DNA from: Zanthoxylum bungeanum
Lineage: Eukaryota; Streptophyta; Magnoliopsida; Sapindales; Rutaceae
DNA: 64,000 nucleotides
Assembly: GCA_019454045.1 (NCBI GenBank)
Contig: SKCR01017976.1
Location: 1-64,000, forward strand
Reading direction: 5' to 3'
Shown: positions 1-40,255 of the stretch, in pieces
Layout of the letters: the number at the start of each line of letters is the position of its first letter
How positions within the stretch are numbered: position 1 is the stretch's first letter
Notes under the pieces: generated by a model
The model's database searches: none
Seen by the model: only the letters and a program-made list of their open reading frames with translations
Told to the model about the DNA's origin: nothing
Program-made: the position numbers and the translations under genes

Positions 1-78
1 AATAATCTCAGAACATTCATTGGACATAGCGCGATACCCATACTCCTACTTCTTACTTTTTCATAAAATAAAGGTGTT
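1..78 (-). pseudogene. Ty1/copia element A, RNase H fragment left of the Athila insertion
   Basis: Read on the minus strand, this short flank encodes a decayed copia RNase H segment: an ISWKSKK-like stretch (one W lost to a stop) followed, after a small loss, by YRAMSNECSEI. Copia RNase H domains normally carry ISWKSKKQ...SEYRAM there. The rest of the element resumes at 12660. The Athila element therefore landed inside this RNase H region, and bases 74-78 (GTGTT) are the left copy of its target-site duplication. Confidence 0.7.
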
Positions 79-2161
79 TGATTAGTGGAAAATATATCAA
101 TATTTACCGCCCATTTTACTTAATATTTTATTTAGTTTCTCGGGTTTGATGAACGTTTTGATGTGTTTTAGTTTATTTTACAGATAAAATAATATTGGGA
201 CATAATGAAATCATTTAGGACGAAATTTGGGTCAAATAGGGGTAAAAATTGGACTTAACATATTAATTTTGGAGATTGGAAACTTAAAAGGGAGTTTTAA
301 CGAAGTGCAGTTTTGGAAATTCCAATTTTGCGCATCTGTCGTATTTTGGGCATAACTATTTACTCTGATATCGGATTGAGCTGATTCAAATTCCAGATTA
401 AAGAAAACTCAAACATCTAAAACTTTGAAAGACAAAATAATATCAAATTCTGAAGATGTCATGCCCGAAATTGATGAACCATCCAGAAGTGTGTTGTGTG
501 TAATTATTAAAGTAATTTTCAATCATTTTCAAAGAAAAAAATAAATTAATAAATAAATAATAAAAATTATCAAATCACCACCAAACATGATAAGCGATTA
601 GTGGAGCAATTAATAATGGATTTGGTGGAGCAATTAGTGGAGCAATTAGTGGAGCAATTAATAATGGATTTGGTGGATGATTTGATGGAGGTAAAATTTT
701 GCCTATAAATATCAAGTCATTTCATTTGTAAATTCATACTTTCTTCTAAGGAATTCCTTAAGAATACTAAGAAGATTGTATCTTGTTTGTTTATTTACAG
801 CTTTCAGTAATTAATTTCCGCTTTCGCACTTTCTTTTCTTTACTTTTCAGTAATGAGGAGGTAACTCCCATTTGCTGGGGTAAAAGGTAAAACTTTTATT
901 ACTAATATTTAGATTAATCTCCCTTAATTATAATATATAAACTAGTTAAAACCTAACTTAACGAGGATACCACCATATTGGTCGGTTGGTAATTATTTAA
1001 ATTGGTTTTAACTTGACTAAATTGGATACCGCCTGATTGGTCGGTTGGTAATTAATTATTAATTTGACTTAATCTGGATACCGCCTATATGGCTGGTTGG
1101 TAATTATCATGCAAAGTTAATATATTATATTAATGGAGATATCTAAAATAGAAGTAATAAAAGTGGATCATTTTACCTCAGCATTTTATTTTATTGTACT
1201 TTTACTTTATTTACTTTCAGCAATTTACTTTCAGCATTTACTTTCAGCAATTTACTTTTCAGCAATTTACTTTCAGCATTTACTTTTCAGTAATTTACTT
1301 TCAGCATTTACTTTTCAGCATTTAATTTTCAGTATTTAATTTCAGCATTTACTTTCTGTCATTTACTTTTCAGCATTTTACTTTATGTCTTTTATTTTAT
1401 TTAAGTTTTTACTAGCCCTAGTTATGTGTCGTAACTAAATTAGTTATATGGGGTTGTGATGAATTCTAATATCACCGGTTTATAAGGGGTTATTTTATAG
1501 TTTGGGTAATTTAAAGGTTTACTTATTAAGTCTTAAGCTTAATGCTTCTTGTTGTCTGATCACCAATAAGATTGATGTGGTAAATCTAAAATAAACTTGA
1601 CAAAGGAATTTTAGGTTTCAGCCTTAGACTTAATAGCCCACGATCTTCCTTGAGGATAAATAACCCTTTAATTAATTTCCTTACATGATAGACATATACC
1701 TGTCGGGCGGGGGTAGCCATAATTGGAACTTAAACTTTATGAATCTAGATAATTTGGTTGACATAGACATATGGTTCAATTGGGTTATACTGGGTATTTG
1801 CGTCTGACCATCGACAGAGGCTTTCGCATAATTTAGTGTTCTAGGTTAGTAAAATGATTTATTACACAAACATGAAATAACCACTTCATCTTTTAAAAGA
1901 TATTAGAAAGATTCACAACCCTAGATAGTTTCCTAATATTGAATTTTCTTAAACCTACTTTCGCGTAATTTTATTTTATATGTTTTTAAATTAAAAATCA
2001 TCACCATTTCAAATCAATCAATCAACCTGTTAGATACTAGTAATCATTTGACCTCATAAAATTAATAGATTAGGTATTAAGTCCTCGTGGGATCGATACT
2101 TTTTATACTACTTGAAAGATACGTGAGCTTGCGTTATACGCGTGTGATTACGCACCGGTCA
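79..2161 (+). repeat. Athila 5' LTR (about 2.08 kb)
   Basis: It matches 10511-12659 along its whole length. It begins TGATTAGTGG and ends CACCGGTCA. It contains a short repeated AGTGGAGCAATTA block (about 600-660), three copies of a GGATACCGCC...GGTCGGTTGGTAATTA block (about 963-1105) and a TTTACTTTTCAGCA-type array (about 1195-1390). It lacks about 70 bp that the 3' LTR has near 11262-11333, between two TTTTCAGT direct repeats. Substitutions are denser in the first few hundred bases than elsewhere. Confidence 0.93.
1195..1390 (+). repeat. Short tandem array TTTACTTTTCAGCA in the LTR
   Basis: About a dozen imperfect 13-15 bp units alternate between TTTACTTTCAGCA and ATTTACTTTTCAG. The same array lies in the 3' LTR at about 11690-11885 with a different unit order and number, which fits slippage. 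A spurious 68-codon open frame through it is a by-product of the repeat. Confidence 0.85.
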
Positions 2162-2167
2162 AGTTTT

Positions 2168-2184
2168 TGGCGCCGTTGCTGGGG
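2168..2184 (+). other. Primer binding site, tRNA-Asp type
   Basis: TGGCGCCGTTGCTGGGG starts six bases after the 5' LTR. It is complementary to the 3' end of plant tRNA-Asp apart from one C-to-T change, the primer commonly used by Athila and Tat elements. It marks the start of minus-strand DNA synthesis. Confidence 0.9.
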
Positions 2185-2293
2185 ACTTATTTATCTTTCA
2201 ATATTAGTTTAGAGGTTAGATACCTTCACTTGTATCTAATTTCTTTTTACTTACTGTTTTTATTTTCTTGTGTTTCAGGTTCTCAGATCCTTT

Positions 2294-3830
2294 ATGAGAC
2301 GAACCAGAAGCTTTGAACTCCGACCGCTTGACCCAGAAATTGAAAGAACCATCAGACAGTTGAGAAGGGAAAGGCGAGAAGGCCAAGAAGCTTTAGTCAA
2401 CATGGAACCTGAACCTTTGGAGGTTGCACCACCAATTCCCATTCGAGACAGAACCATTCCGGTGGTTGACAGACTCATTTCTTGTATTGTACTTCCTCAT
2501 TTACCAGCAAATGCGGGTGACATCAAATTATGCATTTAGATGATTCAGCAGTCAGTTCAGTTTGGGGGAATGCAACTGAAGATCCTAATGCCCACATCAG
2601 CAACTTCCTGGAAGTTTGCGGCACTTTCAATTACAACCGAGAATCTGAAGAAGCAATGAGACTGCGTATTTTCCCATACTCCTTGAAGGACAGAGCTAAA
2701 GCTTGGCTACATTCACTACCAGCAGGTTCCATCACAACTTGGAACACTTTAGCCACCAAATTTCTTGCAAAGTACTTTCCACCAGCCAGAACTGGAAAGC
2801 TGAGGAATGACATTACATCCTTTGTGCAACAAGACTCAGAAACTCTCTACGAAGCTTGGGAAAGGTACAAAGATTTGCTCCGGAAATGTCCTCACCATGA
2901 GATTCCAAAATGGCTTCAAGTCCAAACCTTCTATAATGGACTATCTAGACTGATGAGAACCACAATCGATGCTGCTGCTGGAGGAGCTTTACTGGCAAAA
3001 GGAGAAAATCAAGCCTGTGACCTAATCGAAGAAATGGCCAACAAAAATTCCTTGTGGCCAACAGAAATGAGCATGATCCAAAGAATTGCAGGAATTTATG
3101 AAAGTGGAGCCAATACAGCTGTCAACGCCAAGCTGGATCAGATATGCAAATTCATGGAGACTCTCAGGACTGGATCCACAAGTTCACCATATAGAGGAGC
3201 ACCAGAACCAAACCAACTTGAAGAGACGGTGAATTATGTCAACAATTTCAACAGACAGTGGAACAATCCATATTCCAACACCTACAACCCAGGGTGGAGG
3301 AATCATCCCAATTTTTCATGGAGCAACAATTCAGGACAAAAGAACAATCCACCACCTGGATTTCAACAACAAACTATCCACCACCAGGATTTCAACAACA
3401 GAACAAAGGCCAGGAACATAAAAAAGAACCAGAAATGAAAGAATAGATTGCAGAGATGTTCAAAAAGCAACAAGCAGCATATGATGCTATCTTTCAGAAC
3501 CAATCTACTTCCATCAAAGCACTGGAGAATCAAATTGGACAACTGGCTAATGCTCAGAGTTACAGACCGTCAGGTAATCTTCCCAGCAACACAGAACCAA
3601 ATCCAAAGAACCGAGGGAATGAGCAATGTCAAGCCATTACTTTGAAAAGCGGTACTGAAATCAACAAAGATGTTGGAATCAAGGTATCCAAAGAAGAAGT
3701 TTCAAAAGAAGCAGAGCAACAGATGGAGGAAAAAGAAGCAAAGGAAAAAGAACCAGAAAGAATCACTCCACCTCCACCTTTTCCACAGCGACTTCAGAAA
3801 AATAAACTGGACAAGCAGTTTGCTTGATTC
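2294..3830 (+). pseudogene. gag: Athila gag (broken)
   Basis: Encodes the capsid-type Gag that packages element RNA. The frame opens with MRRTRSFELRP; I chose ATG 2294 over the in-frame ATG at 2270 because it follows an acceptor-like TTTCAG ending at 2278. The central part carries Athila Gag landmarks: RLRIFPYSL, AKAWLHSLPAGSITTW, a TIDAAAGGALL motif and a Gln/Asn/Pro-rich tail with PPGFQQQ repeats. No CCHC knuckle is seen. The frame shifts near 2525-2540 and again near 3365-3400, then meets TAG at 3444-3446 and TGA at 3825-3827. The segment 3456-3827 continues Gag with QSTSIKALENQIGQLANAQ and a Lys/Glu-rich linker into protease. Confidence 0.88.
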
Positions 3831-4361: not shown

Positions 4362-6210
4362 ATGAAAGTTCAGGACCAAGAAGTTACTTTCAATGTTTTC
4401 AAAGCCATAAAATTCCCGAGCGATGAAAAGGAAGAAGAATGCTTCAGAGTTGATGTTGTTGATAGTATCGTTCATGATACTAAGCAATATCCCACGGATA
4501 CACTTGAAGCTTGCATCACCAACATGACTGACAACGAGCTAGATGTTGAAATCCTGGAATGTATCAACTACCTTGACAAACCATTCCGATTCAAATCAAC
4601 ACCACCAGTTGAAATCTTGGAACTGCCTAAGAAAGATCGAATCAAGCCTTCGATTGAAGAACCACCACAGCTGCAGCTGAAGTTACTTCCGAGCCATCTC
4701 AGGTATGCATTTCTTGGAAACTCTTCTGAATTACCTGTTATTATTTCTTCTTCACTAACATTACAGCATGAAGAAAAATTACTGAGAGTATTACGAGAGC
4801 ACAAAAGAGCCATTGGCTGGACTATAGCAGACATTCGAGGCATTAGTCTATCATTTTGCATGCACAAGATTCTGATGAATGATGAGTACAAACCCACAGT
4901 GGAGCATAAACGGAGACTCAATCCAATCATGAAGGAAGTCGTTAAAGAAAGAATAATCAATGGTTGGATGCTGCCATCATTTACCCCATCTCAGATAGCA
5001 GTTGGGTGAGTCCTATGCAGTGTGTACCAAATAAATGAGGAATTACTGTGGTTACCAATGAAAAGAATGAGCTAATCCCAACAAGAACGGTGACTGGATG
5101 GAGAGTATGCATGGACTACAAGAAGCTGAACAAAGCCACGAGAAAGGATCATTTTCCGCTACCATTCATTGACCAGATGTTAGAAAGACTGGCGGGACAT
5201 GAGTTCTATTGTTTTCTGGACGGATATTCAGGGTACAATTAGATTGCCATCGCACCAGAAGACCAGGAGAAAACTACCTTTACATGTCCCTATGATACTT
5301 TTGCTTTCCGTATGATGCCATTTGGATTATGTAATGCCTCTGCTACATTTCAGCGTTGCATGATGGCCATCTTCTCAGAAATGCTGGAGCAAAGTATGGA
5401 GGTTTTTATGGATGACTTTTTTGTGTTTCGAGATTCTTTTGACCACTGCTTGCAAAATTTAGAACAGGTGTTACAAAGGTGCGAAGATACAAATCTGGTG
5501 CTCAATTGGGAGAAATGCCATTTCATGGTACATGAGGGCATTGTTCTTGGACACCGGATCTCACAAAAAGGAATTGAGGTAGAAAAAGCAAAGATTGAAA
5601 CAAATAAAAAACTACCTCCGCTGACATCTGTCAAAGGGATTCGGAGCTTTCTCGGACATGCAGGTTTTTACAGGAGATTTATCAAAGACTTTTTCAAGAT
5701 TGCTAAACCTCTGTGCAATCTTCTGGAGAAGGATGTGCCTTTTAACTTCACCAAAGAATGTCAGGAAGCTTTTGAGATCTTAAAACAAACAAAGCTGATT
5801 TCTGCCCCCATCATATTGTAGCACCAGACTGGACCCTTCCATTTGAAGTAATGTGTGATGCTAGTGATTATTTTCTGTAGGTGCAGTTTTGGGACAACGA
5901 AAAGCAAAGATTTTTCACACCATTTACTATTCCAACAGAACTTTGAATGAAGCTAAATCAACTACACAACCACTAAAAGGAGTTGCTCACAGTTGTAAAT
6001 GCTTTTGACAAATTCCGCTCCTATCTGTTGGGTCCCAAAGTAGTGGTCTACACAGATCATTCAGCAATCAAATACTTGATCACGAAGAAAGATGCCAAAC
6101 CCAGATTGATCCGTTGGATTTTCTTCTGCAAGAATTTGACGTGGAGATCAAAGACAGGAAATGGACAGAAAACCCAAGTGGCAGATCATCTATCGAGGCT
6201 CGAGAATGGA
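4362..6210 (+). pseudogene. Athila reverse transcriptase and RNase H (broken)
   Basis: It continues the protease frame, then shifts near 4980-5045. RT landmarks in order are GWRVCMDYKKLNKATRKDHF (about 5095-5155), FCFLDGYSGYN-like, TFAFRMMPFGLCNASATFQR (about 5300-5355) and the active site VFMDD (about 5401-5418), the gypsy form of YxDD. NWEKCHFMV and SFLGHAGFYRRFIKDF follow. After a further shift near 5820, RNase H is seen as VMCDASDY and then [13 protein letters not shown] and [11 protein letters not shown]. Stops include TGA 5007-5009 and TAG 5240-5242. Together these would copy element RNA to DNA; the breaks rule out activity here. Confidence 0.9.
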
Positions 6211-7580
6211 GAAACAGCTGGCAAAGATCTGTTAATCAAAGAAACTTTTCCTGATGAACAACTTTTTGCCATGAAACAACAAGATTCCCCTTGGTATGCT
6301 GACTATGTCAACTACATTGTGTCAGGAAAATGGCCGTTGGAATGGACAACTCAGCAACGGAAGAAATTCTTCAAAGAAGTCAAGCACTATGTCTGGGATG
6401 AGCCATACCTGTTCAAATGGTATGCTGATAAATTATTGAGACAGTGTGTTCCACAAGTGGAGGTCAACAGTGTTTTGCAACACTGTCATTCATCACCATA
6501 TGGCGGACACTTCGGCGGAAATAAAACTGCAGCCAAAGTCCTACAATCAGGTTTGTTCCAGCCCACTCTTTTTAAAGATGCTTATCTTTTTGCTCTTCAA
6601 TGTGACAAGTGCCAGAGAATGGGGAATATTTCGAAGAGAAATGAAGGGCCGTTGCAAAACATTCTGGAAGTGGAGATATTCGATGTGTGGGGTATAGATT
6701 TCATGGGACCCTTTGTTCTATCATTCGGAAACCTGTACATCTTGGTTGTTGTAGACTACGTCTCCAAATGGGTTGAAGCAATTGCACTACCATCCAATGA
6801 TTCAAAATTGGTGATCAAATTCCTGAAAAATAATATTTTCACTCGGTTTGGAACACCTCGGGCCATTATCAGTGATGGTGGCACATATTTCTGTAACAGA
6901 TAATTTGATGCACTCCTATCCAAATATGGAGTTACTCACAAGGTTGCCACTGCTTACCATCCACAGTCAAACAGACAGGTTGAAGTTTCAAACAGGGAAA
7001 TCAAAAGAATCTTGGAGAGAACTGTTGGATCAATAAGGAAAGATTGGTCTACAAAACTAGATGATGCATTATGGGCCTACCGAACAGCTTACAAGACACC
7101 CATTGGTATGTCCCCATATCGATTGGTGTTTGGAAAAGCGTGCCATCTGCCATTTGAGCTTGAACACAAGGTGTCCTGGGCACTGAAGAAGTTAGAATCT
7201 TGATTCACAAGCTGCAGGAGAGAACGACTTCACCACCAACTCACGAATTGGAGGAATTTTGCTTACAGGCTTCTGAGAATGCTAGATTGTACAAAGAAAA
7301 GACCAAGAAATGGCATGATCGAAAAATAGTGCATAGACAGTTGGAACCAATGCAGCAAGTGTTGTTGTACAATTCACGGTTGAAACTTTTCCCTGGAAAG
7401 TTGAAATCAAGGTGGTCAGGTCCATTTGTGATCACTCAGGTTTTACCATAAAGAGCTGTTGAGTTACTGGATCCCAACACCAACGAAACATTCAAGGTTA
7501 ACAGTCAGCGTGTCAAGCACTACTGGGGAGAATCGTTTGAGCGAAAAAAAGAAAGTGTCACACTTTCAGATCCAGCCTAA
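6211..7580 (+). pseudogene. Athila integrase (broken)
   Basis: The zinc-binding HHCC region reads as [17 protein letters not shown]...[10 protein letters not shown] (about 6480-6625). The DDE core has D in WGIDFMGP (about 6690), D in IISDGGTYF (about 6870) and E in [11 protein letters not shown] (about 6980-7010). [19 protein letters not shown] and the C-terminal SRLKLFPGKLKSRWSGPF block are strongly Athila-like. There is TAA at 6901-6903, a frameshift near 7200, TAA at 7449-7451 and a natural-looking end at TAA 7578-7580. No chromodomain is seen, as expected for Athila. Confidence 0.9.
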
Positions 7581-7716: not shown

Positions 7717-8268
7717 ATGGAAGAAGCTCTCGCAAATCTTCGTAAGCAATTTCCTTCTCTCCCTCAAAAATCTCTGATGAAAGTCTACAAAGCTCGCTAA
7801 GAACGGATGAGATTACTAACAATCCATTGTGTTCCTTATGATATACGTTGGGTAATTGAAGCACGGGTCCGAATGGCAGGTGAGTCTTCTGAATCTTTTA
7901 TTTCACATCTGCCTGGTTTTGGAAAAATCACATATGCAAAGAAACGTAGAGCTAAGCAAATGGGTGTTTGTTACAAATGTGCACGCTGTAATTGCAATAC
8001 TCGTTGTCGTTCTTTAAGAATGGTGTTTGATAATCGCGAAGATAAAATTAAATTCATTAGAGATGGCTTGAGTAAGGAGTATGTAGATAATATATCTTCA
8101 ACTCTTGAGATGCCTCCCAGTGGATATGTTCATATAGCCATTCACAAATTACATACATACACAATTTCAAAAAGAAAGACAACAGTTAAGTCTTGGGAAT
8201 CTGACTCAAAAAGACCCTGTTTGCCAATTTATAAGAAAATGGATGGGAAGCTTGTCTCTGACGCATAG
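7717..8268 (+). pseudogene. Extra Athila ORF: small basic Cys-rich protein, resembling plant-virus nucleic-acid-binding proteins
   Basis: One frame of 183 codons from ATG 7717 to TAG 8266-8268, broken only by TAA at 7798-7800; the open part starts at ATG 8 codons... later at 7807. A polypyrimidine tract and AG ending at 7700 sit just upstream and look like a splice acceptor. The centre has YAKKRRAKQMGVCYKC, then more Cys as CARCNCNTRC, then KIKFIRDG. An Arg/Lys cluster directly before a Cys-x2-Cys motif, with a downstream K..FI..G block, is the layout I know from the Cys-rich nucleic-acid-binding proteins of carlaviruses and vitiviruses, several of which suppress RNA silencing. That likeness is my inference from motif order, not a search result. 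It lies between pol and the LOG gene on the same strand and is not an Athila env-like ORF: no signal peptide or membrane segment is evident. Function unknown. Confidence 0.6.
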
Positions 8269-8519
8269 ACGTCAATCAAGCCGCTACTTTTCTTGTAAAT
8301 ATTATATCTCTTTGTCTTTTCCTAATAATTGTAATTTGTTTTGTTTGTTCTTTTATTTTCTCTCCGACAGGATCCAGACCTTTTTGACTATCACGATTTA
8401 TTTTACTATTAACTAATAATTGTCATTTGGCAGGTACTAGCGCTATTATTTTACTCACCCTTTTCAGGTGTTATAAATTCAACTCATCATTGCACTTTTA
8501 AAGACATCCAGAGTAAAAC

Positions 8520-9173
8520 ATGGAAGCCCCTTCAAGAAGACGAGTTGAAAATATCTGTGTGTTTTGCGGTACTAGTGTTGGTGTTAAGCCATAATACGTA
8601 GAAACAGCACAGGAATTGGGTCGAGTCTTAGCTGCAAGGAATATGCACTTAGTATATGGTGGAGGCAATCTTGGACTTATGGGGATTGTTTCAAAAGCCG
8701 TACAGGAATGAGGCAGTCACGTTTTGGGAATCATCCTAAAACCCCTTGCAGAGGCAAATCTTATTGAACCATCAAACGGAGAGGAAATGATCGTGCCAGG
8801 TATGTTTGAACGATTGGTAGAAATGATTAACCGTGCTGATGCTTTTATTGCTTTGTCAGGTGGCTTGGGCACATTGGAGGAAATTTTTATAGTGTTATCT
8901 TGGGCGAACCTGAACATACACCAGAAACCTCTTAGACTGTACAACGTTGAAGGATTTTATGATTTTCTTTGTGTGTTTCTTGATGATGCTCGGAGAAATG
9001 GGTTCGTGTCAAAACCTATGAAAGAACTCCTCTGTACCGCCAGAACTGCTCCGGATCTAATAGACTAACTCTTAGCTTATGAACCACAAGTTGACCCTAT
9101 CATTTCAAAGATAAATTGGTCCGAGGACGATCGTGGTAAGAGGCGTCGGATTAATCTGGATCTTAACCTTTAA
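8520..9173 (+). pseudogene. LOG-like: Captured LONELY GUY-type cytokinin riboside 5'-monophosphate phosphoribohydrolase, three stops
   Basis: LOG enzymes release active cytokinin base from its nucleotide in the cytosol and nucleus. One uninterrupted frame of 217 codons runs from ATG 8520 to TAA 9171-9173, about the usual LOG length. Landmarks in order are [63 protein letters not shown] and NVEGFYDF. The family's PGGxGTxxE motif is kept except P to S, with the catalytic-type Glu and the preceding Arg retained. In-frame stops are TAA 8592-8594, TGA 8709-8711 and TAA 9066-9068; there is no frameshift. There are no introns, whereas plant LOG genes have several, so capture via RNA is likely. The C terminus ends KRRRINLDLNL, a basic patch plus an LxLxL motif not usual for LOG. 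It sits 251 bp after the Cys-rich ORF inside the Athila element. This copy is dead. Confidence 0.92.
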
Positions 9174-9705
9174 TTTCCTGTAGAATTTCAGCTAACCAGA
9201 TATTATCTTCTAAACTCTTCTTCTACTGTTTAAGACATTGGGGACAATGTCTCATTTAGGTTTGGGGGAGGGAATTAGTTGATCAGTACCTTGTTTTTAG
9301 TTTGTGTGTTGTTTTTATTTTTAGTCCAAAATTTTTCGAAAAATACAAAAAAAAATTTCAAAAATTTCAAAAATTACAAAAATATTTTGTGTTTTTGTGT
9401 TTTTATTTTGACTAAAAATGTGAAATTGGTAAGAGATAACTGTGTAAGGAATTTCCACTCCTGAGACGTATCTCAAACCATTTTTGAAACAAGTTAGTTT
9501 TTGTTTATTTCATTTTAAATTATTTAATTTGTAAATTCTCCATAAAACTGACTAAAATGGATCTTCATATGCTCAGTTAGCAAATATTATCAACATGCAT
9601 TGTAACATACGGACATGAGCTAAAATTGAAAAGTTTGTAATATTCAGTGCTCTAGTTTAATTGGAGAAAACATCTCAAAAAGTGATGGAGTATAAAAAAA
9701 AAAAC

Positions 9706-9931
9706 GTCTGAGATCCGAGTTATTAAGTCTGTAAGGGTGTTTTAACACCTAGTGCCCTAAAGCCAACTGATTTGAGAGTCACTGGCCCAAAGCTCGCTAC
9801 ATGGATCAAAGATGTTGCAAAAATATATATATCTGAAGTCTGAGTAATTAAGTATGTATGGGTGTCTTAACACCTGGTGCCCTAAAGCCAACTGGTTTGG
9901 GAGCCACCGACCCAACACTCGCTACATAGAT
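9706..9931 (+). repeat. Duplicated ~100-bp block with GGTGTTTTAACACC hairpin
   Basis: Two diverged copies (about 9706-9805 and 9832-9931) share ATTAAGT-TGTA-GGGTGT-TTAACACC, TGCCCTAAAGCCAACTG and CCCA-A-CTCGCTACAT. GGTGTT/AACACC can form a 6-bp stem in each copy. The same block occurs twice in the second Athila fragment (38436-38668). Confidence 0.85.
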
Positions 9932-10498
9932 GGAAGATATTATATATAAATAAATAAATAAATCAAAAATCAAAAAAAAAATCAGAAAAATCAGAAAAAT
10001 TATTCCATTGCTACAAAAAGGTGTGAATTCTGATAAAACTTTAGGACAAAATATTACTCTCTTATCAACTGCACTTGTGACTGTTGTGGGCAAAAATGAG
10101 TTGATTAATATTTAGTCGGCTGTGCATAAGGAGAATGGTAAATATAATCGGAGAATTTACTTATTCAGTAATTTAGAAAAAAAAAAAAAAAAACAACTAG
10201 TAACTTGGAGTAGAAGTTTCACCTGATTAGTCACTAACTTCTTTATTCTATTTTCTCTTGTCTTTTTTCTTTTGTGTGCATTAGTTTTATTATCTTTTTA
10301 CTTTTGTAAAACTTTTGTGGGTATCGTTGCTGTAAGCCCTCACGAGACTATAACTCGTCCACTAGGGACACCTAGGGGTTTAAAGGCTTGTTGCATATGC
10401 TAAATGCAACCGTGATCCCTACGAAAGTGGCTTAGTTTAATTTTAATTGTTTCTTGTATTTTATTTTATTGTTTTGCTCGGGGACTAGCAAAATATTA

Positions 10499-10510
10499 GG
10501 TTTGGGGGTG
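10499..10510 (+). other. Polypurine tract
   Basis: GGTTTGGGGGTG abuts the first base of the 3' LTR, the expected primer site for plus-strand DNA synthesis. A near copy (9258-9273) lies 1.2 kb upstream, just behind the LOG gene. Confidence 0.8.
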
Positions 10511-12659
10511 TGATGAGTGGAAAATATATCAATATTTACCGCCCCTTTTACTTAATATTTTGTTTCGTTTCTCGGGTTTGATGAACGTTTTGATGTGTTT
10601 TAGTTTGCAGATAAAATAATATTGGGACATAATGAAATCATTTAGGACGAAATGTGGGTCAAATAAGGGCAAAAATTGGACTTGACATATTAATTTTGGA
10701 GATTGGAAACTTGAAAGGGCGTTTTAACGAAGTGCAGTTTTTGAAATTCCAATTTTGCGCATCTGTCGTATTTTGGGAATTACTTTTACTCCGATATCCG
10801 ATTGATCTGTTCAAGTTCCAGATTAAAGAAGACTCAAAGATCTACAACTTTGAAAGAAAAAATAATTTCGAATTCTGAAGATTTCATACCCGTAATTGAT
10901 AAACCATCCAGAAGTGTGTTGTGTGTAATTATTAAAGTCATTTTCAATCATTTTCAAAGCAAAAATAAATTAATAAATTAATAATAAAAATTATCAAATC
11001 ACCACCAAACATGATAAGCAATTAGTGGAGCAATTAATAATGGATTTGGTGGAGCAATTAGTGGAGCAATTAATAATGGATTTGGTGGATGATTTGATGG
11101 GGGCAAAATTTTGCCTATAAATACCAAGTCATTTCATTTGTAAATTCATACTTTCTTCTAAGGAATTCCTTAAGAATACTAAGAAGATTGTATTTTGTTT
11201 GTTTATTTACAGCTTTCAGTAATTAATTTCTGCTTTCGCACTTTCTTTTCTTTACTTTTCAGTTTTTACTTTCCGCAATTTACTTTTACGTACAGTACTT
11301 TTCTTTCTTTAATTTTCAGTTTTTACTTTTCAGTAATGAGGAGGTAACTCCCCTTTGTTGGGGTAAAAGGTAAAACTTTTATTACTAATATTTAGATTAA
11401 TCTCCCTTAATTATAATATATAAACTAGTTAAAACCTGACTTAACGAGGATACCGCCATATTGGTCGGTTGGTAATTATTTAAATTGGTTTTAACCTGAC
11501 TAAACTGAATACCGCCTGATTGGTCGGTTGGTAATTAATTATTAATTTGACTTAATCTGGATACCGCCTATATGGCTGGTTGGTAATTATCATGCAAAGT
11601 TAATATATTATATTAAGGGAGATATCTAAAATAGAAGTAATAAAAGTGGATCATTTTACCTCAGCATTTTATTTTATTGTACTTTTACTTTATTTACTTT
11701 TCAGCAATTTACTTTCAGCATTTACTTTTCAGTAATTTACTTTCAGCAATTTACTTTCAGCATTTACTTTTCAGTAATTTACTTTCAGCATTTACTTTTC
11801 AGCATTTAATTTTCAGTATTTAATTTCAGCATTTACTTTCTGTCATTTACTTTTCAGCAATTTACTTTTCAGCATTTTACTTTATGTCTTTTATTTTATT
11901 TAAGTTTTTACTAGCCCTAGTTATATGTCGTAACTAAGTTAGTTATATGGGGTTGTGATGAATTCTAATATCACCGGTTTATAAGGGATTATTTTATAGT
12001 TTGGGTAATTTAAAGGTTTACTTATTAAGTCTTAAGCTTAATGCTTCTTGTTGTCTGATCACCAATAAGATTGATGTGGTAAATCTAAAATAAACTTAAC
12101 AAAGGAATTTTAGGTTTCAGCCTTAGACTTAATAGCCCATGATCTTCCTTGAGGATAAATAACCCTTTAATAGATTTCCTTACATGATAGACATATACCT
12201 GTCGGGCGGGGGTAGCCATAATTGGAACTTAAACTTTATGAATCTAGATAATTTGGTTGACATAGACATATGGTTCAATTGGGTTATAATGGGTATTTGC
12301 GTCTGACCATCGACAGAGGCTTTCGCATAATTTAGTGTTCCAGGTTAGTAAAACGATTTATTACACAAACATGAAATAACCACTTCATCTTTTAAAAGAT
12401 ATTAGAAAGATTCGCAACCCTAGATAGTTTCCTAATATTGAATTTTCTTAAAGCTTCTTTCGCGCAATTTTATTTACATGTTTTTAAATTAAAAATCATC
12501 ACCATTTCAAATCAATCAATCAACCTGTTAGATACTAGTAATCATTTGACCTCATAAAATTAATAGATTAGGTATTAAGTCCTCGTGGGATCGATACTTT
12601 TTATACTACTTGAACGATATGTGCGCTTGCATTATACGCGTGTGATTACGCACCGGTCA
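10511..12659 (+). repeat. Athila 3' LTR (about 2.15 kb)
   Basis: Begins TGATGAGTGG and ends CACCGGTCA, followed by the right GTGTT target duplication. It is the same as the 5' LTR apart from point changes, small indels and an extra block at about 11262-11333. The short-unit array is at about 11690-11885. A 74-codon open frame near its start is not a gene. Confidence 0.93.
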
Positions 12660-12664
12660 GTGTT

Positions 12665-14918: not shown

Positions 14919-15313
14919 TGTTAGTTCCATTTTTATTGGCAAAGTCCGTAACAAAATAAGTTCAATTGAGTTGTAATGAGTCTTGAAGATCTTGAAGCAA
15001 TTGGACAAGTATTTGGACAAAATCTGATGGATTTATCAGAGCGATATTCACTCTTTTGAATATTTCAGATGATTTAGAGCTCAAATTGACATGAGGTTAG
15101 TTGAATTGGAGAGTAGACTCGAATATGATCCCGTACATATAAAGAATGTATGATTTTTCCAAGGGATGAGAAAGTTACAATTGTTTTAAGTTACCCTTGA
15201 AAACCAATACGCGACCTGCGTTCGTGTGGTGTTCGTATTTTCGTTTAAACGTTTCGATATAGAAATTTGTTTTTCAGTTTCGTTTGAAGTGAGTTCGAAT
15301 ATCCCTGTGTAAG
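14919..15313 (+). repeat. Copia element D LTR, piece 1 of 3
   Basis: Copia A integrase similarity stops at 14918. A TGTTAGTTCC start lies at 14919, and the sequence runs to GTAAG, where the next element is inserted. I infer it is the 5' part of an LTR continuing at 26526-26917 and 37455-37782, because the last piece is followed by a copia primer site and gag start. No second LTR of this family is in the window to confirm it. Confidence 0.5.
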
Positions 15314-17836
15314 TGTTATGGTTGGTGCTCAGAGTGCCAATCCGGATCGTATTTATGTCTGATTCATAAATATGAACAATTCATTTTTCCATAATATTAC
15401 TTATTTAATGGTCGCACCTCTTGTCTTTTATACACATTTTCGATCTAATTGTGATTAGATATCTAATTATGATTAGATTGAAACTAAATTTGATTTAGTG
15501 ATACGTGTATATTAGACAAAGACCCTAGGATTTACAACGTAGTGCGTAGTGACAACGTAGTTTGTAATTGATATTGGGAAGCGTCACTATAAGTTGTATA
15601 TCCTTAAATAAAGTTCTTGATCAAGATTTGCCAACACAAGTCGGTTAGTAAAACTCCGATGAGACCAGTACATGTCGTATATCGTGACTTGGTCCGATGG
15701 TTTATCCCAATGAACCATGAGTCTCGAGAGACTCGTATAGACATGTAGGTGTTTATTTGATAAACACTGAACGACTCACTAAAGATTTCCTAATAGATGG
15801 TACACCAACATCAATAGGAATCTTCTCGAGTTGAACGAGCATAGTGGTCCTTCGACTTGAGATACCAGTGTGGATATATGAGTTATCCTCCACACTTTGA
15901 TGGTAGTCACGTCACCGATCTATTTAGATCAGACCTCCGCCTGTTCGTTGGGTGTGGACTGATGCTCATGATATCCTGTGTGTATCAAGATAGAATCCGC
16001 CAGTCCTGGGTACAGGGCATAGGCATCCTACACTTGTTTGCGATCTAGTAAATCCATGGTCGTGGTATAACTTTGAAATCAGTTCCGAGTGTTATTTAGA
16101 GATCGTGAAAGTCGACTATATTATACCATAAGGATTTGACGTTCTTATCTATATCTCAGGCATAATATGGATAGTCTGTGACGGAGGGATTATATGTATG
16201 CAATGATCTCGACTTACATAGTTTAGCGAGATTATCCGTGGTCTTCATAATTCATGAGTGGGTGAATTATGGACACGAAATTGGATTTCGTGACGGATAA
16301 ACCTAAACTTAGAGAGTCCCACAATATGAAGTGTACTCGTTGAGCATTTGGGCAACGCTTTATGAATAATACAGATTATTCATAATACTTCATCGGATAA
16401 ATGAGTTAATTCGAATCGTTTAATTGGTTAAATGAAAACACATGCATAAGGGCATTTTTGGTCAATCGTAATTATTGTGTATTTGTATTTGATACATAAT
16501 TTGATTAGATACATATTAATTAATTGTCAAATGAGATTTTGACACATGCCATTAATATATGTATTTTTTATTTAATGTAAATAAAAATACATATATAATA
16601 ACAATTATAGTAATTAATTATTTAGATATTTCAATGTTAAATATTTAAATAATTAAATGATAAACTTTTTTCATAATAGTTATGATAAATATTTAATTAT
16701 AATTGGTTACATGGGGCATGATTTAATTAAACTTTAGGTGTGCAAATTTGATTTGTTAACATAAAGTTTAATTATATTTAATTGATTTAAATTACCAAAA
16801 TGACCATTATACCCTTGTAGAGTCGGTCATGGGAATTTTTAAAGTAAAAAATTTTTCATTTCCTTCTCATGGCTATGTTATGGCCGAACTCCTCCTTAGA
16901 AAAAAGCTCTCAAATTCTCTTGATGATTCAAGATGGGGAATGAAGAAAATCAAGAAAAAAAGCCAAGGAATGAGAGGATTAAATGTAATTCTATAAATCC
17001 CTAAGCTTAGAAAATATGTTTCTTGTTTCTTGATGATCTAGTGAGATCTAGGGTTTCTTCTTTTCTATAAATTTGGGGCTTTTGGATTTGGAGGATGGAA
17101 TTGGAAGCATATTGCATATGTGAAGTTGTTTTGGATAATATTATTGTAATATTGATTCAATTTTGTCATTTGATGATATGTTGCCATTCTAGAGTGTTAT
17201 GACCACTCTTGTAATGCCTAGAATTATTCTTGGGTGGTTCATTTGTGGTGACTTTGGTTGGAGTTAAGATTAATTAGATTAATGTTGGAAAATTGGATTT
17301 TAAGCATGAAAAATTGATATTTTTACTTCTGGATCAGATCTGGAAATACTGTTCATATGGTGATGAAAATAATGTCATATAAATGTATTGGATGTGTTTT
17401 GGGTGTTGCAACAATTTCCGGAAATTGTTTCGGAGTTGAAATAAGCGAAAACGGTAAAAAATGGCATTACCGGGTGACTTTTGAGCCAACCGGGTGACAG
17501 CTGCCCAAACAGTGAATTTTTCAATGTTCGGGCAGCCCATGAACTGCCCTAATACTATTGGGGCTGACCTGGGTAGCTCTCATGTGTATTGGGTGATCGG
17601 TTCGGTTAAAAACGCGTTTTATGCCATTTTGCGGAAAAAATATTTTCGTAAAAGTTTCGCGACTTTTCTTAGTTATTTATGTCGTTATTTGATATCAAAT
17701 AAATATGTTTAGGTGAAATATGAATGAATTATTCATATTTAATATTGAATAATTCATTCGGTAATTTAAAAAGTTTTAAAATTATGATTTCGCCTGAACA
17801 GCGCTTCCGCCGCGCCCTTTGCTCAAAACCCCAACA
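15314..17836 (+). repeat. 5' LTR of the non-coding element
   Basis: Matches 24023-26525 over its length. Starts TGTTATGGTTGGTGCTCAGA and ends CAAAACCCCAACA. A 63-codon open frame (15857-16048) has a counterpart at 24566-24757 in the other LTR with many replacement changes and is not a gene. Confidence 0.93.
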
Positions 17837-24009: not shown

Positions 24010-24022
24010 AAGTGGGAAAAAT

Positions 24023-26525
24023 TGTTAGGGTTGGTGCTCAGAGTGCCAATCCGGATCGTATTTATGTCTGATTCATAAATACGAACAATTCATTTTTCCA
24101 TAATATTAGTTATTTAATGGTAGCACCTCTTGTCTTTTATACACATATTCGATCTATTTGTGATTAGATATCTAATTATGATTAGATTGAAACTAAATCT
24201 GATTTAGTGATACGTGTATATTAGACAAAGACCCTAGGATTTACAATGTAGTGCGCAGTGACAACGTAGTTTGTAATTGACATTGGGAAGCGTCACTATA
24301 AGTTGTATATCCTTAAATAAAGTTCCTGGTCAAGATTTGCTAACACGGGTCGGTTAGTAAAAATTCGCTGAGACCAGTACATGTCGTATATCATGACTTG
24401 GTCCGATGGTTTATCCCAAAGAACCATGAGTCCCGGGAGACTCGTATAGACATGTAGGTGTTTATTTGATAAACACTGAACGACTCACTGAAGATTTCCT
24501 ATTAGATGGTACACCAACGTCAGTATGAATCTTCTTTAGTTGAGCGAATATAGTGGTCATTTGACTTGAGATACCATTGTGGATATATGAGTTATCCTCC
24601 ACACTTTGATGACATTCATGTCACCGATCTATTTAGATCATACCTCCACCTGTTCGTTGGGTGTGGACTGATGCTCATGATATCCTATACGTATCAAGAT
24701 AGAATCCATCAGTCCTGTGTACAGGGCATATGCATCCTACACGTGTTTGCGATCTAGTAAATCCTTGGCAGTGGTATAACTTCGGAAATCAGTTCCGAGT
24801 GTTATTTAGAGATCATAAATTTGAGGTCGACTATATTATACCATAAGGATTTGACGTTATTATCTATATCCCAGGTATAATATGGATAGACTGTGACGGA
24901 TGGATTATACGTATGCAATGACCTCGACTTACATATTTTAGTGAGATTATCTGTGGTCGTCATAATTCATGAGTGGGTGAATTATGGACACGAAATTGGA
25001 TTTCGTGACGGATAAACCTAAACTTATAGAGTCCCACAATATGAAGTGTACTCGGTGAGCACTTGGGCAACGCTTTATGAATAATACAGATTATTCATAA
25101 TTCTTCATCGGATTAAATGAGTTAATTCGAATCGTTTAATCGGTTAAACGAAAACACATACAAAAGGGCATTTTTGGTCAATCGTAATTATTGTGTATTT
25201 GTATTTGATATATAATTTGATTAGATACACATTAATTCATTATCAAATGAGATTTTGACACAAGCCATTAATATATGTATTTTTTATTTAATGTAAATAA
25301 AAATACATATATAATAACAATTATATTAAGTAATTATTTAGATATTTCAATGTTAAATATTTAAATAATTAAATGATAAACTTTTTTCATAATAGTTATG
25401 ATAAATATTTAATTATAATTGGTTACATGTGGCATGATTTAATTAAACTTTAGGTTTGCAAATTTGATTTGTTAACATAAAGTTTAATTATATTTAATTG
25501 ATTTAAATTACCAAAATGACCATTATACCCTTGTAAAGTCGGTCATGGGCATTTTTAAAGTAAAAATTTTTCATTTCCTTCTCATGGCTATGCTATGGCC
25601 GAACTCCTCCTTAGAAAAAAGCTCTCAAATTCTCTTGATGATTCAAGATGGGGAATAAAGAAAATCAAGAAAAAAAGCTAAGGAATTAGAGGATTAAAGG
25701 TAATTCTACAAATACTTAAGCTTAGAAAATATGTTTCTTTTTTCTTGATGATCTAGTGAGATCTAGGGTTTCTTCTTTTCTATGAATTTGGGCTTTTGGA
25801 TTTGGAGAATGGAATTGGAAGCATATTGCATGTGTGAAGTTGTTTTGGATAATATTATTGTAATATTGATTCAATTTTCTCATTTGATGATAAGTTTCCA
25901 TTCTAGAGTGTTATGACCACTCTTGTAATGCCTATAATTTTTCTTGGGTGGTTCATTTGTGTTGACTTTGGTTGGTGTTAAGATTAATTAGATTAATGTT
26001 GGAAAATTAGATTTTAAGCATGAAAAAATTGATATTTTTTCTTCTAGATCAGATCTGGAAATACTGTTCATATGGTGATGAAAATAATGTCATATAAATG
26101 TATTGGATGTGTTTTGGGTGTTATAACAATTTCCGGAAATTGTTTCGGAGTTGAAATAAGTGAAAACGGAAAAAACGGCGTTACCGGGTGAGTTTTGAGC
26201 CAACCGAATGACGGCTGCCCAAACAGTGAATTTGTCATTGTTCGGGCAGCCCATGAACTGCCCTAATACTATTGGGGCTGACCTGGGTAGCCCTCATGTG
26301 TATTGGGTGGTCGGTTTGGTCAAAAACGCGTAAAGTTTTCGTAAAAATTTCGCGACGTTTCTTAGTTATTTATGTCGTTATTTGATATCGAATAAATATG
26401 TTTATGTGAAATATGAATGAATTATTCTTATTGGATATTGAATAATTCAGTAATTTAAAAAGTTTTGAAATTACAATTTCGCCTGAACAGCGCTTCCGCC
26501 GCGCCTTTTACCCAAAACCCCAACA
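24023..26525 (+). repeat. 3' LTR of the non-coding element
   Basis: Starts TGTTAGGGTTGGTGCTCAGA after a purine-rich stretch (24006-24022) and ends CCCCAACA before the right GTAAG. It differs from the 5' LTR by scattered substitutions and small indels, for example loss of bases near 26330. Confidence 0.93.
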
Positions 26526-37985: not shown

Positions 37986-40255
37986 ATTTTATTCTTTTGT
38001 AAAAGAAATAAAAATTTGATTTGATTTTTATATTATTTCTTAACAAGTGATTTTTGTTCATTTCCTTTTAAATTATTTAAATTTATGAATTCTTCATAAA
38101 ATTGTTTAAATTTGATTTTCATATGCTCATTTGACAAGTATTATCAACATACATGGTAACATATGATCATGGATTGTAAGTGAAAATTTTATAATATTCA
38201 GTTATCTAGTTTGTTGGAGGCACCACCTAAAAACAATGGAGTTTGCGTTTTCATTTAAAAAAAAAGAAGCAAATCAAAAAAAAAAAAACTAACCAAGCTT
38301 GTACTTAGTAACCGGACATCTTGGCTCAGCAAGCAATGGTTATTCGCTTAAAACGATAAAGCTTGAGTTTTTTTATAAAAAAAAAAGGAAAAAAAAAGGA
38401 GTGTGAATAAGTTTGATTTTGTAGCTTCTTTAACTCGAACAATTAAGTCTGTATGGGTGTATTAACACTTAGTTCCCTAGGGCCAACTGGTCTGAGAGTC
38501 ACTGGCCCAAAGCTCGCTAAATGAGTTAATGAGAAAGCTTAAGAAAATCATACATTTTTATTTTTGACATATGAGATCCGAGCAATTAAGATCGTAAGGG
38601 TGTCTTGACACCTAGTGCCCTAAAGCCAACTGGATTGAGAGTTATAGGCCCAAAGCTCACAACAAGGATTGAAGATATATTATTATTAAAAAAACTAATT
38701 TTGTATTTATAAATAAATTTATATTGCCAAAAGGTATGAATTCTAATATAATTTTAGGACAAAAATATTACTATATTTTCAACAAAATCTATGAATACTA
38801 TGGGCACAATGAAATGATTGATATCTTGTCTCATGTGTGAATGAAAAAAATGGTAAAATGTAAATGAGGATTTACTTATTTGATAATTTAGAAAGAAAAA
38901 AAATAATTATTAACTTGAAAAAGACTTTTTTCTTTTAGTTTTCGCTTAAATTACTAGGGACTGGTAATAAGCTGATCAGGGCTTTGATGGTCACTAAAAA
39001 GTACACATTTATTAAAAGAAAAATTAATATTTTACACTTGTAGTTTCATTAATCCCCTTAATTTAGCACATTTGTGAAATAACAATTAAATTTATGTTTT
39101 ATATATTTTTATTGTGATTTTTTATTTCTTATGTAGGTGAAATAATACTTTGGATTTTGGAGATTAGAAACTTAAAATGACGTTCTAACTTTATACTCTG
39201 ATATCGGATTGAGGCGATTCTAGTTCCAGATGAAAGAATACTCAAATATCTACAACATTATTGTATTTTCTAATTTTGAAGTTTTCAAAGACGGAATTGA
39301 TGAAATATCTAAAGTGTGTTATATGTAATTATTAAAAATACAAACAAACAAGATTAGGAAAAAAAAAATTCCTCCACCTTTCCACCGAAAGGTGGTGGAG
39401 GATTTGTCAAAGCATGCAAAGAAATTTACATGTTTTGACAACCATGTAAGGAAAAAAAGTGAGTGATTTCTTTTAATTTGTAATTTGCATAAGAGATGTT
39501 GTGCTCAACATTTCATTTTTCTCAGCAAAATTTCCAAATGTCTTTTTGAGATTTTGTGGGATAAGCTCTTGTGTGTATTTTTTTATTTTGTAATTTTTTT
39601 CTTTTATTAATAAAATTATGAATGTTTTTATTTATATATTGTTCTGCTACTTTTTTTCTTGCTGGGTGAAGCTAGTCGTATGAAAATATAGATATTTTTA
39701 TTTATATTTTATTTTATAAATTGTGATAGTTTTCCAAATAAAATTTATACTCTTTTCAGTTTATTTAGGACTATTGATTAGCTGTATACAGTCCCCGATT
39801 GACACAGATATTGACACAGATAATACTTGAATCCCATAAATGAGAAAGACTGGACTATTAAAGATCTGGATTAATACAGTACAGCCTATATGACTGGTTT
39901 TATATATTTGACATAATTGAGTACCTAACTGGACTTGTTATAAACAAATATTATCACCGCCTTTATAGTTGGTTTTATATGTTTTGGCATATTTAGGACA
40001 TTGGTCGGACTAATTATCAACATGACAGATCACATGTGTTAACATAATTAATACTTGATAATTATGGAATAAATTGATTGAGAAATAATTATAATTTATA
40101 TTTGATTTGATTTTATTGTTTTTATTTTATTAGTTGAATTATTATTTTATCTTATTAAATTTATTCCATGTAGATCGACCCTGGACTTACCGGGTTATTT
40201 TATTATTTCGACACTCTTATACTTAGGAGTAAAAAACCATTTTGTGAGTGTGTCA
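37986..40255 (+). mobile_element. 3' end of a second Athila family (3' non-coding region plus 3' LTR)
   Basis: 37986-38984 parallels the 3' non-coding region of the first Athila (same CATATGCTCA...TATTATCAACAT block, same duplicated hairpin block). 38985-40255 starts TGATGG, ends GTGTCA and shares patches such as CTCTGATATCGGATTGAG with the first Athila LTR, but is shorter (about 1.27 kb). No coding part is present; it was cut off on the left. Confidence 0.78.
38436..38668 (+). repeat. Duplicated hairpin block, second Athila family
   Basis: Copies at about 38436-38525 and 38572-38668 carry the same ATTAAG-T, GGGTGT-TT-ACAC and CCAACTG words as 9706-9931. In the first of these copies the stem has decayed (GGTGTATTAACACT). 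Confidence 0.82.

What the first reader, a model, noticed from the sequence alone, without database searches (positions are those of the whole stretch)
7717..9173. Athila retrotransposon with a two-gene 3' cassette: a LOG cytokinin enzyme plus a basic Cys-rich ORF
Inside an element with perfect LTR and TSD boundaries, two sense-strand ORFs unrelated to gag-pol or env occupy the 3' region. LOG makes active cytokinin, and the other ORF has the layout of a viral nucleic-acid-binding or silencing-suppressor protein. A retroelement that could locally raise cytokinin (meristem, cell division) and blunt silencing would favour its own transmission. Seen: positions, motifs and strand. Inference: a selected function.
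Basis: partly seen in the sequence, partly recalled or inferred. Interest (0 to 1): 0.9.

Follow-up and report, generated by a model that had tools for sequence, protein, structure and literature searches.

The report
Retrotransposon with virus-like and hormone genes
A plant jumping gene carries two extra genes behind its copying machinery, one resembling a plant-virus regulator and one resembling a plant enzyme that switches on a growth hormone, and copies across the same genome show that both were kept by selection, so they probably help the element.

Summary
The element (LTRs 79-2161 and 10511-12659, TSD GTGTT on both sides) has two sense ORFs after integrase. ORF 1 (7717-8268) passes the Pfam cut-offs of Viral_NABP and Carla_C4, nucleic-acid-binding proteins of carla-type viruses. 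ORF 2 (8520-9172) is a LOG cytokinin enzyme. Both are broken in this copy. It is not a one-off: 59 of 60 further copies fetched from the same 3.96 Gb genome carry both genes in the same order and place. Differences between copies concentrate on third codon positions in both genes but not in the spacer, so both were under purifying selection. New here: the LOG clade has a basic, LxLxL (EAR-like) tail in 90 of 120 listed relatives against 0 of 120 host LOGs compared. A plant contig elsewhere has the NABP in the same place without LOG nearby. LOG-like ORFs in Athila-type elements were already reported; for the virus-like gene, the pairing and the tail my paper searches listed nothing. I infer a nuclear module that makes host cells proliferative and permissive. 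Structure and selection are shown; function is not.

The parts
74..78 (.). 5-bp target-site duplication GTGTT, left
79..2161 (+). 5' LTR, TG...CA
2168..2185 (+). primer-binding-site-like stretch TGGCGCCGTTGCTGGGGA right after the 5' LTR (tRNA identity not tested)
2530..3438 (+). gag, open 302 aa (Retrotrans_gag 2.1e-23)
5312..5821 (+). reverse transcriptase part (RVT_1 1.5e-15); pol is broken into several frames
5983..7526 (+). RNase H end and integrase (RT_RNaseH, Integrase_H2C2, rve in 5983-6903; C-terminal part by tblastx to L001 up to 7526)
7717..8268 (+). ORF 1: viral-type nucleic-acid-binding protein (Viral_NABP / Carla_C4), with one early in-frame stop in this copy; open part 7807-8268
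8352..8467 (+). two pyrimidine-rich CAG acceptor-like sites (ending 8370 and 8467) in the NABP-LOG spacer, suggesting spliced expression (inference)
8520..9172 (+). ORF 2: LOG (cytokinin riboside 5'-monophosphate phosphoribohydrolase-like), 217 codons with three in-frame stops in this copy; C-terminal tail KRRRINLDLNL
9235..9250 (+). non-coding motif ACATTGGGGACAATGT after LOG; in L001 a matching stretch follows NABP directly (by eye in the printed sequence)
10511..12659 (+). 3' LTR
12660..12664 (.). target-site duplication GTGTT, right

Best explanation
SHOWN: a lineage of plant Ty3/gypsy (Athila-like) retrotransposons carries a conserved accessory module between integrase and the 3' end: a viral-type nucleic-acid-binding protein with a Cys4 cluster (NABP), then a LOG enzyme with a basic + LxLxL tail. 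Both were under purifying selection in the elements that gave rise to the copies. The NABP occurs in the same place in another plant contig with no LOG in the 983 nt after it, so the module looks composite. INFERRED: the two ORFs are made from spliced, env-like subgenomic RNAs. Both proteins act in the nucleus. The NABP binds nucleic acid, regulates host genes and/or weakens silencing, as carlavirus CRPs do. The LOG releases active cytokinin and, through its EAR-like tail, recruits TOPLESS-type co-repressors. Together they push the cell towards a dividing, less-silencing state in which the element can copy itself into meristem-derived germ cells.
For: Recurrence: 59 of 60 fetched copies have NABP then LOG, 55 of 60 show IN-NABP-LOG, the other pieces lacking an integrase match or (L068) LOG. 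Independently, all 16 contigs shared by the LOG list and the P0001 NABP list have NABP 250-263 nt before LOG, same strand, and 7 of the 16 pairs are free of stops in both. Open frames: 122 of 150 scored LOG places and 122 of 150 scored NABP places have no stop; these are the best-scoring places, not a random sample. Selection: pairwise differences at codon positions 1/2/3 are NABP .057/.047/.099, LOG .068/.038/.112, spacer .111/.096/.105, over 60, 59 and 59 copies, decayed ones included. NG86 omega is NABP 0.499 (37 copies, 666 pairs) and LOG 0.306 (10 copies, 45 pairs) among open ORFs, below the minimum of every set of 40 neutral simulations. Identity: Pfam. LOG fold: pLDDT 85.3, best match AtLOG3 2a33, TMt 0.94. 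R98 and E121 are invariant in 29 LOG relatives aligned. Tail: LxLxL in 90 of 120 listed LOG relatives against 0 of 120 host LOGs, basic cluster 108 against 1; basic + LDLNL tail in 44 of 59 genome copies. One split separates 60 LOG relatives from 20 host LOGs at 100/100. Same place in another plant: L001; a Rhamnella protein joins integrase end to NABP. Carlavirus CRP precedent (CVB p12: transcription factor, hyperplasia, weak suppressor): passages of PMC12172455.
Against: No expression, binding, enzyme or silencing data. The window copy is dead (stops in both genes). The NABP structure model is poor (pLDDT 68.6, pTM 0.30) and its viral structure matches are not significant (best E 0.1), although 9 of the top 11 are named nucleic-acid-binding, silencing-suppressor or 15-kDa proteins of plant viruses. 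LxLxL is a short motif and 30 of 120 LOG relatives lack it (16 of the 96 of 205-260 aa; some are cut short), among them the rows nearest the host LOGs (tree). The host control came from AtLOG3/AtLOG8 queries only. The acceptor-like sites are only mildly enriched (2 of 11 in the spacer), and the site before NABP in the window is weaker (10 of 15 pyrimidines). The NABP margin over neutral simulation is thin in the most transition-biased setting (0.499 against a minimum of 0.501).
Confidence: 0.5

Rival explanations
1. One-off capture: this insertion picked up two unrelated sequences that drift neutrally.
For: Both genes are broken in the window copy.
Against: 59 of 60 copies have both; codon-position bias in both genes and not in the spacer; omega 0.31-0.50.
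Confidence: 0.02
2. The NABP is a structural or movement helper for the element's own RNA (nucleocapsid-like chaperone or env substitute), not a host regulator or silencing suppressor. LOG is simply a second cargo that improves host-cell conditions.
For: It sits where env-like ORFs sit; the basic + Cys4 make-up (C-x2-C-x4-C-x3-C in 36 of 37 open copies) fits RNA binding; it occurs without LOG nearby in L001.
Against: Relatives in carla-type viruses are described as transcription factor and silencing suppressors (PMC12172455 passages). No data of mine separate the two.
Confidence: 0.3
3. The LOG only makes cytokinin; its C-terminal tail is a nuclear-localisation or packaging signal and the LxLxL pattern is incidental.
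For: The basic cluster is more widespread (108 of 120) than LxLxL (90 of 120), and some relatives end right after the basic cluster.
Against: LxLxL persists in sequences that differ elsewhere in the tail (LDLNL, LDLSL, LDLTL, LNLTL), among them named Populus, Reevesia and Paulownia sequences.
Confidence: 0.3
4. LOG has lost enzymatic work and is kept as a scaffold that carries the repressor tail.
For: 4 of 40 readable copies have SGG or AGG in place of PGG.
Against: R98, E121 and GGxGT are invariant in 29 relatives aligned; 33 of 59 copies keep MSER..PGGLGTLEE exactly, 19 of 59 were not readable by the pattern.
Confidence: 0.08

Closest known systems
Athila-type elements with LOGL4-like / YgdH ORFs (Steinbauerova et al. 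2011, abstract recalled only; Citrus and Populus consensuses in PMC9289625, section 12 read)
   Same: Ty3/gypsy element with a LOG-domain ORF.
   Different: A second, viral-type gene sits between integrase and LOG; the LOG carries a basic + LxLxL tail; recurrence and selection are measured here. Neither feature is mentioned in the section and passages that I read.
Carlavirus / betaflexivirus cysteine-rich NABP (Pfam Carla_C4, Viral_NABP)
   Same: Basic region followed by a Cys cluster; passes the Pfam cut-offs.
   Different: Encoded in a chromosomal retrotransposon; relatives in several plant families (named hits: Populus, Acer, Xanthoceras, Orobanche, Rhamnella). Cys spacing C-x2-C-x4-C-x3-C. 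The Pfam matches do not cover the first ~35 residues of the 182-aa relatives.
Plant LOG proteins (AtLOG3, AtLOG8)
   Same: Fold and PGGxGTxxE/R98/E121 site.
   Different: Separate clade, no intron in the element, tail absent from 120 of 120 host LOGs compared.
Athila/Calypso env-like ORF and other extra ORFs in plant LTR elements (PMC7264820, PMC6317226, passages only)
   Same: Position between pol and 3' LTR, sense strand.
   Different: The Pfam matches are to viral NABP and LOG, not to an envelope protein. The 2019 survey counted extra ORFs of at least 250 codons, so ORFs of 182 and 217 codons would fall below it.

Membership tests
LTR retrotransposon, Ty3/gypsy order | LTR pair with TG...CA and TSD | tested here: met
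LTR retrotransposon, Ty3/gypsy order | gag, then RT, RNase H, integrase in that order | tested here: met
Athila clade | placement in the Athila branch of RT/IN trees | not tested
Athila clade | Athila ORF-1 domain (PF03078), present in 16% of Athila elements (PMC6317226 passage) | tested here: inconclusive
   not found in the window ORFs scanned; most members lack it too
LOG cytokinin-activating enzyme | LOG fold and family profile | tested here: met
   (fold on relative P0121)
LOG cytokinin-activating enzyme | PGGxGTxxE with catalytic Arg | tested here: met
   met in relatives and in 33 of 59 genome copies exactly; the window copy has SGG and stops
LOG cytokinin-activating enzyme | NCBIfam equivalog cut-off (NF058542) | tested here: inconclusive
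   60 bits against a cut-off of 300, but only the open 114-aa part was scanned
LOG cytokinin-activating enzyme | conversion of iPRMP to iP | not testable with these tools
   needs enzyme assay
Carlavirus-type NABP / CRP | Pfam profile above the curated cut-off | tested here: met
   window ORF above both cut-offs; P0001 and P0027 above both, P0074 below both, P0113 above Carla_C4 only, L001 above Viral_NABP only
Carlavirus-type NABP / CRP | encoded by a flexivirus genome | tested here: not met
   lies in a retrotransposon; so it is a homologue, not a virus gene in place
Carlavirus-type NABP / CRP | same fold as viral members | tested here: inconclusive
   poor model, no significant match
EAR-motif (TOPLESS-recruiting) proteins | LxLxL motif | tested here: met
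   (motif definition recalled)
EAR-motif (TOPLESS-recruiting) proteins | binding to TOPLESS / repression | not testable with these tools
   needs binding and reporter assays

The most novel reading that the evidence does not exclude
A plant retrotransposon lineage has built and kept a two-protein host-reprogramming kit: a zinc-finger-type regulator shared, by transfer in one direction or the other, with carla-type RNA viruses, and a captured cytokinin-activating enzyme that gained a nuclear, EAR-type repressor tail. Together they make cells divide and silence less, the plant counterpart of a growth-promoting retrovirus. The viral CRP genes may even descend from such elements.
Probability: 0.25. 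Interest if true: 0.95.

Novelty: new variant of a known kind. Interest (0 to 1): 0.85.

Why it matters
Retroelements are usually thought to need only gag-pol. This one has kept a hormone-activating enzyme and a virus-type regulator together under selection in a high-copy family, which makes the question whether plant retrotransposons manipulate host cell fate directly testable with single-ORF assays. It links Ty3-type elements and carla-type viruses through a shared gene family. It also suggests that some LOG gene models (for example Populus LOGL10 entries) may be element genes rather than host genes.

Tried and rejected
Rejected: one-off capture. Host LOG misread as element LOG: the LOG relatives form a clade apart from the host LOGs compared, and in this genome they lie in IN-NABP-LOG units. 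An incidental tail: 0 of 120 host LOGs have it; caveat, the host set came from AtLOG3/AtLOG8 queries (best 120 of 7998), so other host LOG groups are not excluded. PMC11593424 (passages) speaks of group-specific motifs of host LOGs; the term LxLxL does not occur in its main text.

Led nowhere: three viral-contig scans found no relative. The NABP structure was too poor to judge. Contig lengths shared between the two protein lists gave no linkage (by eye). The integrase comparison with L001 was saturated at synonymous sites; the integrase omega within the genome (0.279, 14 copies, 91 pairs, mean dS 0.67) may include misaligned ends and is only a rough yardstick. The direction of transfer between virus and element was not tested, as I had no viral sequences to put in a tree. 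One search stopped with an error and was redone. One search's catalytic-motif count of 0 was an error in my search pattern, corrected. Host species: not identified. P0121 and P0001 are up to 96% and 99% identical to copies in this genome, so they are not independent species evidence.

Limits: the 60 copies were picked from the 150 NABP places that one search scored (of 60256 first-look candidates), so they favour copies close to the window NABP; open LOG ORFs (10 of 60) are under-represented for that reason. L068 lacks LOG (1 of 60); its downstream part was not examined. L001 ends 983 nt after NABP, so a LOG further on is not excluded. The neutral simulations used a star tree from one copy, 15 (NABP) or 10 (LOG) sequences, 40 runs for each of 8 settings per gene. 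Copies are related, so pair counts are not independent.

Full report
What is there. The window starts with a Ty3/gypsy element: LTRs at 79-2161 and 10511-12659, TG...CA ends, and a matching 5-bp TSD (GTGTT). The two LTRs differ at 73 of 2062 aligned sites (K2P 0.036), about 1.4-2.6 million years with two rates that I assumed from memory. gag is open over 302 aa; pol is broken into several frames with RT, RNase H and integrase domains in gypsy order. Between integrase and the 3' LTR lie the two ORFs of the finding. Both are broken here: the first has an early in-frame stop and a divergent C-terminal stretch, and the second has three in-frame stops.

ORF 1. The open part (153 aa) matches Pfam Viral_NABP (2.7e-6) and Carla_C4 (3.8e-6), both above the curated cut-offs. 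194 proteins match at E up to 1; the 120 listed carry a precomputed PF01623 label, and 52 of the 120 are 180-184 aa long. Named sources are Populus, Acer, Xanthoceras, Orobanche and Rhamnella. A basic stretch (KKRRAK) precedes C-x2-C-x4-C-x3-C; this Cys pattern is present in 36 of 37 open copies from this genome. A Rhamnella protein joins the integrase end to this domain. A plant-type contig filed under a bacterial MAG (L001) has an open integrase of 466 aa followed by an open NABP in the same place, and no LOG match in the remaining 983 nt. Between window and L001 the NABP has omega 0.345 (181 codons; 0.262 over 166 core codons) at dS about 1.0-1.2. A structure model is poor, and its viral matches are not significant.

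ORF 2. It is a LOG. Full-length relatives of 217 aa reach 87% identity (1134 hits, best 120 listed). R98, E121 and GGxGT are invariant in the 29 relatives aligned. The AlphaFold2 model of P0121 (pLDDT 85.3) matches Arabidopsis LOG3 best. 60 LOG relatives (the first 60 of 96 of 205-260 aa) are split from 20 host LOGs (every sixth of 120) at 100/100. The last 15 residues of the model have pLDDT under 50 and hold a basic cluster plus the LxLxL region: LxLxL (or DLNxxP) in the last 14 residues in 90 of 120 relatives against 0 of 120 host LOGs, and a basic cluster in the last 22 residues in 108 against 1. P0121 itself ends NLDFNL and counts among the 30 without. I recall LxLxL as the EAR motif that recruits TOPLESS; no call tests that. 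The sequences without it include the rows nearest the host LOGs in the tree, so the tail may have grown in steps. Whether each relative outside this genome lies in an element was not checked.

Recurrence. The genome has 3.96 Gb in 51709 contigs. The 150 NABP places scored with the window protein all match. I fetched 60 pieces of at most 4.5 kb: 59 of 60 have LOG after NABP, 246-367 nt apart; 56 of 60 show integrase upstream, 55 of 60 all three; the motif A[CT]ATTG.GGACAAT[GA] is found in 50 of 60. In L001 a matching motif follows NABP directly with no LOG between (by eye), so LOG looks like an insertion between NABP and the motif. With the LOG P0121 as query, 150 of 150 scored places match, 122 without stops; with P0001 as NABP query, 150 of 150, 122 without stops. 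The two lists share 16 contigs, and in all 16 NABP lies 250-263 nt before LOG on the same strand, 7 of them with no stop in either.

Selection. With all copies, decayed ones included, differences at codon positions 1/2/3 are .057/.047/.099 for NABP (60 copies).068/.038/.112 for LOG (59), and .111/.096/.105 for the spacer (59). Among open ORFs omega is 0.499 (NABP, 37 copies, 666 pairs; 662 below 1) and 0.306 (LOG, 10 copies, 45 pairs; 45 below 1). Neutral simulations that forbid stops give means of 0.60-0.88 and minima of 0.50-0.73. LOG is far below these; NABP is below all, by a hair in the harshest setting. So both proteins were selected in the lineages that gave the copies.

Mechanism. Pyrimidine-rich CAG sites lie between NABP and LOG (8370, 8467) and before NABP in L001 (1661), while the one before NABP in the window (7700) is weaker. 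This suggests spliced env-like expression; it is inference. By family knowledge, a LOG releases active cytokinin. Carlavirus CRPs are described as silencing suppressors, and that of chrysanthemum virus B also as a transcription factor that causes hyperplasia (passages of PMC12172455). I infer that the pair makes the cell proliferative and permissive, with the LOG tail adding repression in the nucleus. How likely: structure, recurrence and selection about 0.95; nuclear action of at least one protein about 0.6; the full cytokinin + TOPLESS + regulator picture about 0.25.

What is known. PMC9289625 (abstract, section 12 and passages seen) reports the YgdH/LOG domain in Citrus consensuses, and in Populus trichocarpa without its count filter, and refers to Steinbauerova 2011, whose abstract I recall as naming two Athila-like elements with LOGL4 similarity. 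The same section names no viral NABP domain; its supplementary chart was not seen. The 2019 survey (PMC6317226, passages) counted extra ORFs of at least 250 codons, so it would miss both. PMC3136472 (passages) found one betaflexivirus replicase-like sequence in cucumber; 'nucleic acid-binding' does not occur in its main text. Searches for Athila + carlavirus (one paper listed, a review of viral proteases), Carla_C4/Viral_NABP + retrotransposon (none), extra ORFs + Athila (9 listed), endogenous betaflexivirus (13 listed), retrotransposon + LONELY GUY (20 of 361 listed; 105: 5 listed), LONELY GUY + EAR motif (10 of 113 listed) and EAR/TOPLESS/viral protein (one unrelated) listed no report of the NABP gene, the pairing or the tail; except for the papers named here as seen in sections or passages, I saw listings only. 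This library lacks most subscription papers.

Verdict. The finding is real and better than stated. The LOG part is a new member of a reported oddity; the viral-type gene, its pairing with LOG and the EAR-like tail make it a new variant of a known kind. Function remains to be shown.

Noticed in passing
window 9256-9268 and 10496-10508: A polypurine-tract-like stretch (TTAGGTTTGGGGG) occurs twice: right after the LOG motif and right before the 3' LTR, as if an internal second plus-strand primer sat behind the cassette (read).
   Followed up: no
window 9707-9938 and 38442-38698: A ~107-nt unit occurs twice (83% alike) in the element's 3' non-coding part, and a related stretch lies at 38442-38698, a possible remnant of another copy of the family.
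   Followed up: no
window 15311-17836, 24020-26525 and further pairs: Further repeat pairs (for example 2534 nt at 93%) show that much of the rest of the window is repetitive.
   Followed up: no
one search hits P0160, P0165, P0188: Populus gene models named LOGL10 fall in the element LOG clade with its tail; public LOG gene counts may include retrotransposon genes.
   Followed up: partly
L001: A plant-type retrotransposon contig is filed in a Candidatus Nomurabacteria MAG (DAIEQH010000041.1), most likely contamination.
   Followed up: partly
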